NCBI GenBank assembly: GCA_016234405.1
Contig: JACRCC010000024.1
Location: forward strand, 1-34,544
Origin: Deltaproteobacteria bacterium
Lineage (GTDB): Bacteria; Desulfobacterota; GWC2-55-46
Reading direction: 5' to 3'
DNA length: 34,544 nucleotides
The notes below the pieces were generated by a model. The model did not search any database and had not been told where the DNA came from. It saw nothing but the letters and a program-made list of their open reading frames with translations. Position numbers and translations under genes: made by a program. Positions 293 to 11,227 of this stretch are shown here, one piece after another (the first letter of the stretch is position 1; each line of letters begins with the position of its first letter).

Positions 293-1168
293 TCAATTAA
301 GCCAATCCAGTTTGTTGGAAATCAGCAGTTCGTTTTTCTGCCTATGATGAGTCGTTTTCATTGGGATGGCTTCGTATGGAAAATTGAATTTGGATGCCAA
401 GTCTCGAATCTCCTCGGAATCATCATACGTCATCAGGAAATTTCCCTTAATCCTTGAAGTCAGATCGAAGAGCTTAGCATGATCGACTTGATGATGAGTG
501 TACAATCTTCTCCCCGCAACCGTATACGGCGGATCAATAAAGAAGCAACAGTCCTTTTTATCGGCATATTTGCCGAAGACCTTGAATATATCTCCATGGA
601 AGAATGAAATCTTCTCTTTAACCTGATGAATTGCAAGAATCCTGTCTCTTATTGTTTTGGGATACCACCTCGAAGCAATGCCTTTCCCGTTCTCTCCGTG
701 TTTTATAAGTCCGGAACCTTTTGCCATAATGCCGCCGTGAAATATTCTATTCCTTAAGATCGTGCAGAAGGCCGCCTCTCGGATGCTCTGATTGGGTCTT
801 GTAAGCTCTTTTTCAACATTCTGTAAAGCCAGATCGAAGCGAAAAATTTTATTCGCCAACCATTTATTATCTTCACCCAGAATCGTTTTCCAAACCGCCG
901 CAATATCCGCATCCAGTTCTATCATGACGATATGTCTCGCGCGATTTTCAAAGGCCGCCGTTAAACTTACGATGCCTCCGCCCCCGAAACAGTCAACCAA
1001 TGTCGTTTCCGATGCCTTGAAAGACCTGAGCCATTTTCTGATGACCGGGATGAGCCATGTCTTGCCTCCCGGGTAGCGAAAAGGACTGCGCTGAGGAACG
1101 GATGCCACGTTTACGGGAGAGGCGGTTTGCGGCGTTCTGATATCTTTAAAGAGCTCAAGGTTATTCAT
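293..1168 (-). CDS. D12-class (Dam-like) DNA adenine-N6 methyltransferase of a type II R-M system
   Basis: Transfers a methyl group from SAM to adenine N6 in a short DNA site, protecting it from the neighbouring nuclease. Seen in 291 residues: SAM-binding motif FRYPGGK at 30-36, DCFGGGG at 59-65, acidic motif IELDAD near 83-88, and catalytic motif DPPY at 212-215. This order (I then IV, with the F-x-Y-x-G-x-K start) is the D12/alpha class of Dam. Its ATG lies two bases after the stop of the restriction nuclease gene, so the two are almost certainly co-transcribed with the nuclease first. By eye the pair is clearly more AT-rich than the flanking genes, consistent with transfer. Recognition sequence unknown. 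Confidence 0.92.
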   Translation of the reverse strand: MNNLELFKDIRTPQTASPVNVASVPQRSPFRYPGGKTWLIPVIRKWLRSFKASETTLVDCFGGGGIVSLTAAFENRARHIVMIELDADIAAVWKTILGEDNKWLANKIFRFDLALQNVEKELTRPNQSIREAAFCTILRNRIFHGGIMAKGSGLIKHGENGKGIASRWYPKTIRDRILAIHQVKEKISFFHGDIFKVFGKYADKKDCCFFIDPPYTVAGRRLYTHHQVDHAKLFDLTSRIKGNFLMTYDDSEEIRDLASKFNFPYEAIPMKTTHHRQKNELLISNKLDWLN

Positions 1169-1170
1169 AA

Positions 1171-2067
1171 TTATTCTTCCAGAAGGTCAGTCAATGTAGG
1201 CGCATCGGGAGGATTGGACTCAAGTTTTTCATCGAGTCTTTCCTGTAATAATTCAATGAAGCCCTTTTCTGTCCCCGGCAATGGGGTCGATATCTTCGCC
1301 AGGGCAGGCTCGAATTCAGTGTATACGATTTCTTTCAAACTTAAATTATAGCGGCAAGTCCGCTTGTTGAACTCTAAGTCATAAAGATGCCAGGCAATAT
1401 CCGCTTTTTCTTTTTTCACTTTTTGCAAATCAGGGAGTGTGTCAAAGAAGGATTTTTGCAATACAACGGATTGCTTCTTACCCCAAGCCTTGAAAATGCC
1501 GCCCTTGTATAATAATTGAGGCAGTAAGCGTTTTCTTGACGAGGATAAGAAATCAGGCTTTGGATAATTGAATCCGGTTTTCCATTTAAAATTTTTGCTC
1601 GGTTTTTTGGTATACGCTTCAAACGGGTTCCTTAAATTACCAGAGATATAAACGGCCTGAACTTCCAATGAGGCAAAATCAGTCAATCTCCCTCTGTTGT
1701 CATACGAGACAAGGACGTAATCAATATTCCCGGCCGCATGGTTATTTGCGTCAGTCAGTCGTATTTCGGTCAATGATGTCCAGCTTGTTCCTTTTGGGAA
1801 GAAGAATTTGGCTGCGTTCTCAACAATAAGCCAGCTTTCTCTGAATCTGACGGGACAAGTTATAACGGTTTTATAGTCGTTAAAAATCGAACAGACGCCA
1901 AGAGGGTTGTTAGCCTTATCCTTTGTGCAATTAGGGACTCTGTTGTTGAACGGACAGAGTTTTTCACGCCGATAACGTTTGGAATCACCGCTATCGTTAA
2001 TAACAGGGAATCCGAAGATTTCCGCCAAAGGGTTTTTAAAATTTCCGTCCGAGCGCATAATCACCAT
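1171..2067 (-). CDS. NotI-family type II restriction endonuclease
   Basis: Predicted to cut unmodified DNA at the site protected by the adjacent methylase. The 298-residue protein has the NotI-family layout: an N-terminal segment NPLAEIFGFP, then four cysteines at about residues 38, 47, 59 and 71 (LCPF, NCTKDKA, GVCSIF, TCPVRF). This is the family's iron-binding Cys4 fold. After it comes a PD-(D/E)XK-like core: GNIDYVLVSYD, followed by SLEVQAVYISGN, whose Asp and Glu-x-Gln are the likely metal ligands. Start: the first ATG, 36 bases after the YhaM stop; another ATG lies three codons in, and neither has a good Shine-Dalgarno. The partner is an adenine methylase, whereas the NotI site GCGGCCGC has no adenine, so the target must differ. 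The family call rests on these motifs. Confidence 0.88.
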   Translation of the reverse strand: MVIMRSDGNFKNPLAEIFGFPVINDSGDSKRYRREKLCPFNNRVPNCTKDKANNPLGVCSIFNDYKTVITCPVRFRESWLIVENAAKFFFPKGTSWTSLTEIRLTDANNHAAGNIDYVLVSYDNRGRLTDFASLEVQAVYISGNLRNPFEAYTKKPSKNFKWKTGFNYPKPDFLSSSRKRLLPQLLYKGGIFKAWGKKQSVVLQKSFFDTLPDLQKVKKEKADIAWHLYDLEFNKRTCRYNLSLKEIVYTEFEPALAKISTPLPGTEKGFIELLQERLDEKLESNPPDAPTLTDLLEE

Positions 2068-4304: not shown

Positions 4305-6137
4305 TCAACCCGGTATCTCCGTTGCGGGTCTGCCTATCATGAAGCCCTGCGCGTAGTCCACGCCTAAGTCCCTGAGTATGTCGAGGGTCTCTTTTCTTTC
4401 CACGAACTCCGCGATTATCCTTATGCCCATGCCCTTCGCCACTTCCGTTATGGCCTTGACAAAGAGTCTGTCGTTTAAATTTTGGTCTAAGGATTTTATG
4501 AAAGACCCGGCTATCTTGATGTAGTCAACCTCCATCTCGCGCAGATACATGAACGAGCTGAAGCCCACGCCGAAATCGTCCATCGCTATGCGGCATCCGA
4601 TGGATTTAAGCTCTTTTATGAACTTGGCGGCCTTTGAGAGGTCGCTTACCGCCGAGGTTTCGGTTATCTCGAAGATGAAGTTCTTTGGGTCTACCCCCTC
4701 TCGGCCAAGGGCGTCCTTCAGGAACGAGAGGAATGCCTCGTCGCCTACGTTTTTGCCGGATACGTTCATGCAGAAGTTGAGTCCTTTGGCGTTTTTTTCG
4801 AGCGTTGAATGGAGTCTCATGGCCTTACTTATTATCATCTGGTCTATGGAATTTATAAGCCCGAACCTTTCCGCGATGTCAATGACGACGCCGGGCTGCA
4901 CGACGGCGCCGTCATTTTCCTGCATCCTCGCAAGGGCCTCGTAATGCGTGATGCTCTCTTCCCTTATGTCCATTATCGGCTGGAACCACGGGACGAAGAG
5001 GTCGTCTTTCAACGCCCGGACGATGCTGTTTTTCCAATGGAGGCGGGACTTCATGGTCTCGATGTATTGGTCTTCGGGGGCGAAGACGTGGCATTTATTC
5101 CGGCCCAGATCCTTTGCCTTGTACATGGCCGCGTCCGCCTTCGTAAGAAGCTCCGCGGCGTTTGCCCCGTGTTCCGGATAAACGGAGACGCCGATGCTCG
5201 CCGTGGCGTGGCCGGACACGTCGGAGTGGTAAAAACCTTCAAGGGTCTTTCTGAACCGCTCGGCGGCCATTAAACCCTGCTCGCGGACAAGGGAGGGCAG
5301 GAACACGGCGAATTCGTCTCCGCTCAATCTGCCGATGAAGTTGAACTGTTTGCGGCCGACGACGGAGGACGCCCCACCCTTGTCCTCGACGAACCTGAGC
5401 GCCGTTTTCAAAACCATAGCCACCTTGTGCAGGAACTCGTCCCCCAACCCGTGCCCGTAGATGTCGTTTATGAGCTTGAACTGGTCTATGTCGAGAAGGA
5501 GCAGTATGCCCTGCTTGAACTGCGCGCCGCTTAGAGCGGCGTTGAGGAGTTCTATGAAGTGCGAACGGTTGTAAAGCCCGGTGACCTTGTCGTAGTCGGT
5601 GAGGTAGCGGACATTCTCTTCAGTCACCCTCCTGTTAGACATGTCCTCTTGCACGCCTATGAAGTGACTTATGGCGCGGTCCGGGCTTTTTACCGGCGTT
5701 AGATATGTGTTTGAAAGAGTGGAGCCGCCGTCTTTTTTCCTCATCCTGAAGACCCCGTTCCACCGGGTCCCGGATGAAACGGTCTTCCAGACCTCGGACC
5801 ACTCCTCATCAGAGAGTTCGGCGAAGACCGCGCCGCGCATATTGGCGCCGGTCATCTCCGAGGCAGGGAAACCATAGAAGCTCTCGAAGACCGGGTTTAC
5901 GAATTCGATAACGCCCTTTGAGTCCGCCGTAAAAATCGCGTTTATGCAGTGAGACGTCGCCGTGCAGAATTTCCTCGAGGCGTCGTCCTCGGCGTCGAGG
6001 AGTCTTCGATACCTTTCTTGACTCTCCTCAAGCGCCTTTGACTTCTCGGAGAGTTCCTCCTTAAGGCGCCTGTTGTCTTTAAGGAGCTCATCCAACATGG
6101 GCGTTTTTCGGGGGGGGGGGGGTATCTTTTTTATCAT
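4305..6137 (-). CDS. PAS-GGDEF-EAL protein (c-di-GMP turnover) with C13 tract at codons 6-10
   Basis: Makes and/or degrades the second messenger c-di-GMP in response to a PAS-sensed signal; cytoplasmic, no membrane segment. Layout from ATG 6137: coiled coil about 14-50, PAS 55-170, GGDEF about 180-352, EAL about 370-610. The synthase signature is SGDEF (272-276); the metal motif DIDQFKLIND and GHGLGDE are intact and no I-site RxxD is seen. The EAL domain keeps YEALAR, NVSG, FEITET, DDFGVG and QGFMIGRP, so phosphodiesterase activity is likely. I chose ATG 6137, which has AGGA eight bases upstream, over an upstream TTG at 6194 without a ribosome site. The coding strand carries 13 consecutive C at 6110-6122, directly after the start. 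The downstream ATG at 6098 lacks a ribosome site. Confidence 0.92.
   Translation of the reverse strand: MIKKIPPPPRKTPMLDELLKDNRRLKEELSEKSKALEESQERYRRLLDAEDDASRKFCTATSHCINAIFTADSKGVIEFVNPVFESFYGFPASEMTGANMRGAVFAELSDEEWSEVWKTVSSGTRWNGVFRMRKKDGGSTLSNTYLTPVKSPDRAISHFIGVQEDMSNRRVTEENVRYLTDYDKVTGLYNRSHFIELLNAALSGAQFKQGILLLLDIDQFKLINDIYGHGLGDEFLHKVAMVLKTALRFVEDKGGASSVVGRKQFNFIGRLSGDEFAVFLPSLVREQGLMAAERFRKTLEGFYHSDVSGHATASIGVSVYPEHGANAAELLTKADAAMYKAKDLGRNKCHVFAPEDQYIETMKSRLHWKNSIVRALKDDLFVPWFQPIMDIREESITHYEALARMQENDGAVVQPGVVIDIAERFGLINSIDQMIISKAMRLHSTLEKNAKGLNFCMNVSGKNVGDEAFLSFLKDALGREGVDPKNFIFEITETSAVSDLSKAAKFIKELKSIGCRIAMDDFGVGFSSFMYLREMEVDYIKIAGSFIKSLDQNLNDRLFVKAITEVAKGMGIRIIAEFVERKETLDILRDLGVDYAQGFMIGRPATEIPG
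6110..6122 (-). repeat. Homopolymer tract C13 (coding strand), candidate phase-variation site
   Basis: Thirteen G on the plus strand, C on the coding strand, encoding Pro-Pro-Pro-Pro and the first base of Arg at codons 6-10 of the GGDEF-EAL gene. In this length the downstream frame is open. Loss or gain of one or two C would truncate the protein within a few codons. Could also be a sequencing-length error. Confidence 0.9.
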
Positions 6138-6710
6138 GGCCGTGTCCTGTTTTTTCGTCTCTGGTTGAAGAGGTTTTGAATTGTTCAAAAACAAAGATGC
6201 GACCGCAGTCCGGCGAATGACGATACCGGCTTAAACACGGCTGCTCGGAAGAGCGAAAGGGAGGGCCAAATCAAAGGTTGCCGAGAGTCTAAACTATAGA
6301 TTTCACAGGAAAAGTCAATGTTTTTTTAACGGCAACGGCAACGGAAGAAGCGAATTCTTCACGGAGTTTACACTGAAGCGTTGCGAACGTGTTCAGAATG
6401 ACAACCGAGGCAGCCGCGTAGTGTTGTCATTATCGTTCCCACGCTCCTGCGTGGGAACGCCGTCTTAAGCAGCAATTTACTGCAAAAACGCTGCCAACGG
6501 CAAAAAATCGCTAATGAGATGCGTCAAACAATCCAAGAGAGTCAATCTCCGCATAACCTGCCGTTTGTAAAAGATTTTTTGTGAGGCCGTTTTCCATTGC
6601 ATCAGCGGCGCAAGTGGACATGCCCAAAGGGCAGCGGATTTTTTCAGACACCATTGTCAAAAGAGGACAGGCTTGTCTGGTTTGCGCTGGAAAGCGGCGT
6701 TGGGCGAGGT
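6138..6710. other. Intergenic stretch with dispersed repeats; no convincing gene
   Basis: This stretch separates two minus-strand genes. It holds a copy of the 26-bp palindrome at 6434-6459 and, just before it (about 6366-6402), a sequence with TTTACACTGA and GTTCAGAATGACA. The latter resembles short repeats that I recall as common between genes of environmental genomes. The right part (6511-6654 minus) contains a 47-codon frame with two cysteines and no ribosome site; I do not trust it as a gene. Confidence 0.6.
6434..6459. repeat. 26-bp REP-like palindrome, copy 1
   Basis: CGTTCCCACGC then TCCT then GCGTGGGAACG: 11-base arms, perfectly complementary, preceded by TTAT. The same element recurs at 8301-8326 and 11202-11227. 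Confidence 0.9.
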
Positions 6711-7823: not shown

Positions 7824-9656
7824 ATGCGCCATCCGGCGGCCTTTATCGCGCTCTTTGCCGTTGTATTCATCGTCTATTCCAATACGTTCAACTCGCCATT
7901 TCTCTTTGACGACAAATCCAACATCGTAAAGAATTACAGCCTCGACAACCTTTCTTTACTCTGGCCGCCCACCGGCATGAGATATTTCACAAGGCTCACC
8001 TTTGCGCTCAATTATTACTTCAACGGACTTTCGGTCAAGGGGTATCACATAGTAAATATCCTGATACACGCCTCTGCCTCCTGCCTCGTGTATCTCATGG
8101 CCCATTTGACGTTCAAGACGCCCGTTATGAAATCCGCGCTTACCGGAAAAGGCGACGCGCCATTCTACGCATCCCTTGCCGCAGCCCTTATCTTCGCCGT
8201 CCATCCGCTCCAGACCTCGGCGGTAACGTATATCGTCCAGAGGCACGCGTCGTTGGCCGCGCTTTTTTATCTCCTTTCCCTCGTCCTTTTTATTTCTTAT
8301 CGTTCCCACGCTCCGGCGCGGGAACGCATTATCCTCCTTATCATGTCGCTCGTAACCGCTGTAATGGCGCAGATGACTAAGGAAAATTCCATAACGCTGC
8401 CCGTGGTCATCGTGCTTTACGACCTTGTTTTTTTTAACGACGTAAAGGGGGCGGTAAAGAGGCTTATAACTTTAAGCCCGTATATAGCCGTCTTTGCGAT
8501 AATCCCCCTGACCATAATCGTCATCAAGACGGGCCTTTCGGTCGAGGGGTTTCTTGAGGCGACTCAAACCGTAAGCGGAATGGTCTCGGCGGTCATGAGT
8601 CCGTATCAGTATCTCATAAACCAGTTCAGGGTCGCGGTAACTTACATCCGGCTTTTATTTTTGCCTTTCAATCAAAACCTCGATTACGACTACCCTGTGT
8701 CGGATTCAATCTTCGAGGCGCGGATAATATTGTCTTTATTATTTCTTCTCTCAGCGCTCGGCGCGTCGCTCTACGTCTTTGTCCGCTCCCGCAGGTCAGG
8801 CAACGGCCTCCTATTGACGGCTGCCTGCGGGGTATTTTGGTTTTTTATCACCTTATCGGTCGAGTCCACGATAATACCCATAAAGGACATCATATTCGAG
8901 CACAGGTTATATCTTCCGCTCGCCGGGGTCGCAATAGGTTTTTCTTTTGCCGCGCTTTGGTTCTTTTTTTTCCTGAAAGAGAGGTTCGGGGTATCTACCC
9001 CGCTTTATGTCACTGCCGTTATTTTTATCGCGTTGACTGCGCTGCCCCTTGGCATTGCCGCCTACGCAAGGAACGGCGTATGGAGCGACACTGTGAGCCT
9101 TTGGAGCGACGTTGCGAGTAAAAGCCCTAATAAGCCGCGTGTCCACAACAACCTCGGCAACGCCTACCGCGAGGGCGACAGGGTGGCCGAGGCAATCAAG
9201 GCGTATAAGACGGCCGTTTTGCTCGACCCTGAACTTCCTGAAGCGCACAACAATCTTGGCGATGCGTATATGGCCCAGAATACGCCCGAAACGATTGATG
9301 AGGCAATAAAGGAATTTGGGATGGCCGTAAAATACAGGCCCAACTACGCCGCGGCGCACAACAACCTCGGCAACGCCTATCACGCAAAGGGCATGACGCA
9401 GGAGGCGGTCAAAGCCTTTAACGAATCGCTGAAATATAATCCGGCGAATTCAACCGCTTACTATAATCTCGGGGTGCTCTACGAAGAAATAGGCAGATAC
9501 GACGTTGCCGTTGATAATTACCGGATGTTTATTAAGTTCGCTCCGAGCCAGTTTACCGCGCAAAAGGCCATCGTAAAGGGGATTATCGAGGACCTGTCGG
9601 GCAAAAAGGGAGGGGTTTTAAAGACCCGGAACCCCTCCTCAAAGGCACGGCGATAA
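7824..9656 (+). CDS. Polytopic membrane protein with C-terminal TPR repeats (GT-C/TMTC-like)
   Basis: A 610-residue protein: an N-terminal membrane part of about ten hydrophobic helices, then a soluble TPR tail of roughly 170 residues with three or four repeats (for example AHNNLGNAYHAKG, AYYNLGVLYEEIG). The first outside loop carries FLFDDKSNI, the Asp-Asp position expected for GT-C glycosyltransferases and TMTC-like mannosyltransferases. It may therefore transfer a sugar from a polyprenyl donor to an exported acceptor; the substrate cannot be told. I start at ATG 7824 (MRHPAAF), with GGAGG about ten bases upstream, rather than at 7785. A 26-bp repeat lies in frame at 8301-8326 and encodes YRSHAPARERI in the loop between two helices. 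Stands alone. Confidence 0.85.
   Translation: MRHPAAFIALFAVVFIVYSNTFNSPFLFDDKSNIVKNYSLDNLSLLWPPTGMRYFTRLTFALNYYFNGLSVKGYHIVNILIHASASCLVYLMAHLTFKTPVMKSALTGKGDAPFYASLAAALIFAVHPLQTSAVTYIVQRHASLAALFYLLSLVLFISYRSHAPARERIILLIMSLVTAVMAQMTKENSITLPVVIVLYDLVFFNDVKGAVKRLITLSPYIAVFAIIPLTIIVIKTGLSVEGFLEATQTVSGMVSAVMSPYQYLINQFRVAVTYIRLLFLPFNQNLDYDYPVSDSIFEARIILSLLFLLSALGASLYVFVRSRRSGNGLLLTAACGVFWFFITLSVESTIIPIKDIIFEHRLYLPLAGVAIGFSFAALWFFFFLKERFGVSTPLYVTAVIFIALTALPLGIAAYARNGVWSDTVSLWSDVASKSPNKPRVHNNLGNAYREGDRVAEAIKAYKTAVLLDPELPEAHNNLGDAYMAQNTPETIDEAIKEFGMAVKYRPNYAAAHNNLGNAYHAKGMTQEAVKAFNESLKYNPANSTAYYNLGVLYEEIGRYDVAVDNYRMFIKFAPSQFTAQKAIVKGIIEDLSGKKGGVLKTRNPSSKARR
8301..8326. repeat. 26-bp REP-like palindrome, copy 2, inside a coding sequence
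   Basis: CGTTCCCACGC then TCCG then GCGCGGGAACG, preceded by TTAT as in the other copies. Arms differ from perfect by one base. The surrounding frame stays open, so this copy is translated. Confidence 0.9.
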
Positions 9657-11201: not shown

Positions 11202-11227
11202 CGTTCCCGCGTTCCGGCGTGGGAACG
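11202..11227. repeat. 26-bp REP-like palindrome, copy 3, in the folD leader
   Basis: CGTTCCCGCGT then TCCG then GCGTGGGAACG, preceded by TTTAT. It lies about 15 bases before the folD start, between promoter and ribosome site. Confidence 0.88.

What the first reader, a model, noticed from the sequence alone, without database searches (positions are those of the whole stretch)
6098..6137. C13 tract right after the start codon of a GGDEF-EAL gene: phase-variable c-di-GMP signalling?
Seen: 13 consecutive C on the coding strand at codons 6-10, between the only ATG with a good ribosome site (6137) and the next ATG (6098), which has none. Known: homopolymer tracts near the 5' end switch surface and regulatory genes on and off by slippage in several bacteria. 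Inference: slippage here would flip c-di-GMP level, and thus motility or biofilm state, in subpopulations. The tract encodes a Pro run with no evident structural role.
Basis: partly seen in the sequence, partly recalled or inferred. Interest (0 to 1): 0.75.

Follow-up and report, generated by a model that had tools for sequence, protein, structure and literature searches.

The report
Slippery C13 in c-di-GMP enzyme gene
A gene for a bacterial second-messenger (cyclic di-GMP) enzyme carries a run of 13 identical bases just after its likely start codon, which could switch the gene on and off by copying errors, but the run is not conserved and nothing yet shows that it varies or is used as a switch.

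Summary
On the minus (coding) strand 13 C lie at 6122-6110, codons 6-9 plus the first base of codon 10, after ATG 6137 (AGGA at 7-nt spacing); ATG 6098 has no ribosome site. The gene (4305-6137) encodes PAS-GGDEF-EAL. Run-length decay in this genome predicts about 0.03 C/G runs of 13 or more; 3 exist. The other two lie at or near contig ends, as do many such runs in related genomes; this one is mid-contig with an intact frame.

From ATG 6137, C14 would give 16 aa, ending 8 nt past ATG 6098 (reinitiation could leak); C12 gives 64 aa; lengths 10, 13 and 16 read through. None of 108 homologues has a C/G run above 6 nt near its start, no genome of the same genus is held, and the N-terminus is unconserved. 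There is no sign of a contingency-locus repertoire and no flagellin match, but PilZ and PilT are present. The motif is SGDEF and most EAL residues are intact: likelier a phosphodiesterase.

Verdict: probably hypermutable and able to change expression of this protein; a selected phase switch is possible but unproven; a neutral tract in an unconserved leader is the main rival. Reads would decide.

The parts
4305..6137 (-). PAS-GGDEF-EAL gene, 610 aa from ATG 6137
   Evidence: ORF; Pfam EAL 1.3e-67, GGDEF 1.2e-35, PAS_3 1.1e-9; best solved relative PA0861/RbdA, E 7e-88
6110..6122 (-). C13 homopolymer tract (codons 6-9 and first base of codon 10)
6135..6137 (-). favoured start codon ATG, AGGA 7 nt upstream
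   Evidence: -4.0 kcal/mol with the anti-SD
6145..6148 (-). AGGA, moderate Shine-Dalgarno match
   Evidence: sequence; energy
6096..6098 (-). next in-frame ATG, no Shine-Dalgarno; possible alternative or reinitiation start
6088..6090 (-). TGA that ends the C11/C14 register, beginning 8 nt downstream of the A of ATG 6098
   Evidence: (16-aa product with C14) and the sequence

Best explanation
The C13 tract is a real, slippage-prone sequence inside the first ten codons of a c-di-GMP turnover gene (PAS-SGDEF-EAL, probably mainly a phosphodiesterase). Strand slippage during replication adds or removes a C. Lengths 10, 13 and 16 give the full protein from ATG 6137; 12 and 15 give about 64 aa; 11 and 14 give about 16 aa. 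The gene therefore has one ON register and two low or OFF registers, and the 11/14 register may leak because ribosomes would terminate 8 nt past ATG 6098 and could restart there. Shown: the tract, its frame, and the product for each length. Inferred: the slippage rate, the start at 6137, the polarity of the enzyme and any phenotype. The tract is most likely a recent, lineage-specific expansion in an unconserved N-terminal tail, a switch in effect but without evidence that selection maintains it.
For: In-frame length and early stops in both other registers. Run-length outlier, 3 observed against about 0.03 expected. Mid-contig, unlike many long runs of the clade. Moderate SD at 6137 and none at 6098. 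Intact domains. 5' homopolymer frameshifts switch genes such as swrA, flhA and inlA, and the inlA tract varied about 1,000-fold above the point mutation frequency (PMC2831843).
Against: No reads or strains show variation. No homologue has a tract; no same-genus genome is held. The 13-base length is in frame with probability one third by chance. Two MutS-family genes are present, so mismatch repair is not obviously missing. Start at 6098 not excluded.
Confidence: 0.5

Rival explanations
1. Neutral tract in the leader: translation really starts at ATG 6098 (or both starts are used), the tract lies in or next to the 5' untranslated region, and its length has little effect on the protein.
For: The first 16-50 residues are unconserved. 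In relatives long runs lie mostly in intergenic, terminal or contig-edge sites; in L243 a C15 falls in the apparent 5' extension of a regulator-like ORF whose likely start is downstream of the tract.
Against: ATG 6098 has no Shine-Dalgarno (+0.1 kcal/mol) whereas 6137 does. The frame from 6137 is open across the tract.
Confidence: 0.3
2. Sequencing or assembly artefact: the run or its exact length is wrong in this draft genome.
For: 11 of 26 runs of 13 or more in the clade lie within 500 bases of a contig end and 2 beside N gaps, including the other two of this genome.
Against: This run is at 6110 of a 34,544-base contig and joins two halves of one open reading frame behind an SD and ATG.
Confidence: 0.12
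3. The tract works in translation rather than by mutation: Pro4 (CCC codons followed by CGA) near the N-terminus causes EF-P-dependent pausing or +1 ribosomal frameshifting that sets expression.
For: Four CCC codons in a row. Consecutive prolines cause stalling, and loss of m1G37 in tRNA-Pro causes +1 frameshifting (abstracts of PMC8129111 and PMC7577736).
Against: Nothing like it in homologues. A pure C run is not needed for a Pro run.
Confidence: 0.05

Closest known systems
C. difficile pdcB, a phase-variable c-di-GMP phosphodiesterase (PMC9286219)
   Same: PAS, non-canonical GGDEF and EAL domains; expression of a c-di-GMP enzyme varied at random between cells (if the tract slips)
   Different: pdcB is varied by a 174-bp invertible element 840 bp upstream, not by a homopolymer; variation there is shown, here it is not
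5' homopolymer frameshift switches: B. subtilis swrA, C. coli flhA, L. monocytogenes inlA (PMC2831843)
   Same: Mononucleotide tract in the first codons; a one-base change truncates the product to a short peptide
   Different: Those are poly(A) or poly(T) tracts in other gene types, and variation was observed; here poly(C), variation untested
RbdA (PA0861) and CdgB (A. baldaniorum)
   Same: PAS-GGDEF-EAL core; SGDEF motif as in CdgB, a dual-function enzyme (PMC9683572)
   Different: No recognisable RxxD at the usual place, KIA in place of the usual KID, no additional sensory domain found by Pfam; those genes are not known to me as phase-variable

Membership tests
Homopolymer (slipped-strand) phase-variable gene | Long mononucleotide tract in the 5' coding region or promoter | tested here: met
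   C13 at codons 6-10, outlier in length; depends on the start at 6137
Homopolymer (slipped-strand) phase-variable gene | One-base length change turns full-length translation off | tested here: inconclusive
   From ATG 6137 yes (64 or 16 aa), but ATG 6098 downstream keeps the frame at every length and could give leaky expression
Homopolymer (slipped-strand) phase-variable gene | Tract length varies between cells or strains | not testable with these tools
   No reads; no genome of the same genus held
Homopolymer (slipped-strand) phase-variable gene | Tract kept, with varying length, in orthologues | tested here: not met
   0 of 108 homologues have a C/G run above 6 near the start; but these are at most 56% identical and not positional orthologues
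PAS-GGDEF-EAL c-di-GMP enzymes | PAS, GGDEF and EAL domains | tested here: met
   Pfam above curated cut-offs
Active EAL phosphodiesterase | Conserved EAL, N, E, DD, K, E and Q residues | tested here: met
   All present by alignment; the D of KID is A, also in 6 of 39 near homologues. Activity itself not tested
Canonical diguanylate cyclase | GG(D/E)EF motif | tested here: not met
   SGDEF, as in 19 of 39 near homologues; SGDEF has been found in active cyclases (PMC9683572), so activity is not excluded

The most novel reading that the evidence does not exclude
A poly(C) slippage switch that phase-varies a c-di-GMP phosphodiesterase, with one ON, one OFF and one leaky register, in an uncultivated bacterium with no detectable flagellin, making second-messenger level a bet-hedged trait.
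Probability: 0.15. Interest if true: 0.6.

Novelty: new member of a known kind. Interest (0 to 1): 0.35.

Why it matters
If the tract does switch, c-di-GMP turnover would join the traits that bacteria randomise by homopolymer slippage; the literature searches made here turned up phase variation of c-di-GMP enzymes by DNA inversion only. It would also be a case in an uncultivated lineage that existing metagenomic reads could test directly.

Tried and rejected
(1) Orthologous locus in relatives: homologues (at most 56% identical) have other N-termini, and none lies next to the HD/OB neighbour. (2) A repertoire of 5'-coding poly-C switches: tracts of 8 or more in this genome and of 10 or more in relatives are spread over internal coding, 3'-end and intergenic sites (gene calls there are a simple longest-ORF heuristic). 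(3) RNA structure at the start: none beyond chance, z 0.00. (4) Promoter near the start: one weak match, no more than in shuffles. (6) Flagellar motility as output: no flagellin match. (7) Sister strains in other collections: the one genome-contig scan gave homologues at 49% identity or less.

Full report
What is there. The minus strand reads ATG ATA AAA AAG ATA C13 GAAAAACGCCC ATG, with the C run at 6122-6110. The gene continues to 4305 and encodes 610 aa with PAS, GGDEF and EAL domains. Its best match among solved structures is PA0861 (RbdA), E 7e-88.

Is the run more than chance? This 2.04-Mb draft genome has 47 C/G runs of 8 or more: 35 of 8, 8 of 9, one of 11, and single runs of 13, 14 and 19. 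Extrapolating the 8-to-9 decay gives 0.03 runs of 13 or more; base composition alone gives 0.12. The run is therefore an outlier. Such outliers recur in the clade: 15 of 59 genomes searched have at least one. Of 26 such runs, 11 lie within 500 bases of a contig end and 2 more beside N gaps, which suggests assembly trouble around long C/G runs. The present run is mid-contig and in frame, so I treat it as real, but its exact length may be off by a base or two.

Other long runs in the same genome. The G19 of contig C11 is at the 3' end of a receiver-domain ORF. The G14 of contig C100 starts at base 27 of the contig, about 108 nt upstream of a large ATPase-like ORF. The G11 of contig C84 is intergenic. 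Only the C13 is at a 5' coding position. Across relatives the positions are mixed. I see no dedicated set of contingency loci.

Start codon. ATG 6137 has AGGA at 7-nt spacing (-4.0 kcal/mol; 31% of all ATG triplets score as well). ATG 6098 has no site. An in-frame TTG at 6194 scores -4.5 kcal/mol, but through a broken duplex and with a rarer start codon. I favour 6137. The N-terminus is unconserved, so a start at 6098 cannot be excluded.

Consequences of slippage. From ATG 6137, lengths 10, 13 and 16 give the full-length protein; 11 and 14 stop after 15-16 codons; 12 and 15 after 64-65. In the 11/14 register the TGA begins 8 nt downstream of ATG 6098, close enough for termination-reinitiation, so that register may be low rather than OFF (inference).

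What the protein would do. The EAL catalytic residues are present, apart from KIA where most have KID. The GGDEF motif is SGDEF, which is common among the nearest homologues (19 of 39). SGDEF occurs in active cyclases and in the dual-function enzyme CdgB (PMC9683572). A phosphodiesterase, possibly bifunctional, is the likeliest reading, and its loss would then raise c-di-GMP (inference). The genome holds 10 matches to this protein in all, 10 PilZ matches and two PilT-family proteins above the cut-off, but no flagellin match. Any output is thus more likely through pili or surface polymers than through flagella (inference).

Relatives. No genome of the same genus is held. None of 108 homologues has a C/G run over 6 nt near its start, and no homologue lies beside the same neighbour. 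At this resolution the tract is specific to this lineage.

Comparison with what is known. It would work like 5' homopolymer frameshift switches (PMC2831843). Phase variation of a PAS-degenerate GGDEF-EAL phosphodiesterase is known in C. difficile pdcB, by DNA inversion (PMC9286219). The searches made found no homopolymer-switched GGDEF/EAL gene, but the library is incomplete.

Verdict. Physical instability of a 13-base C run is likely from general knowledge. An effect on expression is about as likely as not. A selected switch is possible (about 0.15) but has no comparative or population evidence yet.

Noticed in passing
window 6435-6458, 8302-8325, 11203-11226: REP-like palindrome GTTCCCACGC-NNN-AGCGTGGGAAC, about 50 places in the genome with up to 2 mismatches and none for the reversed control; one copy lies 300 nt upstream of the gene.
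   Followed up: partly
window 293-2067: NotI-like restriction endonuclease (PF12183) next to a D12-class adenine methyltransferase (PF02086): probable restriction-modification pair.
   Followed up: no
genome G036 (same order), e.g. L201-L220, L238, L239: 51 C/G runs of 10 or more in about 2 Mb, against 0-9 in the other relatives searched, some inside housekeeping genes (DNA polymerase I-like, DnaJ-like ORFs). Mutation bias, repair defect or sequencing artefact?
   Followed up: partly
L192:430-448 and L188:27-40 (same genome): The two other runs of 13 or more: G19 at the 3' end of a receiver-domain ORF and G14 about 108 nt upstream of a large ATPase-like ORF, both near contig starts. With the C13 gene, at least two of three touch signalling genes.
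   Followed up: partly
L230:1502-1513 (genome G054): G12 about 60 nt into an ORF that looks like a SAM-dependent methyltransferase, mid-contig: another possible 5' coding tract in the class.
   Followed up: no
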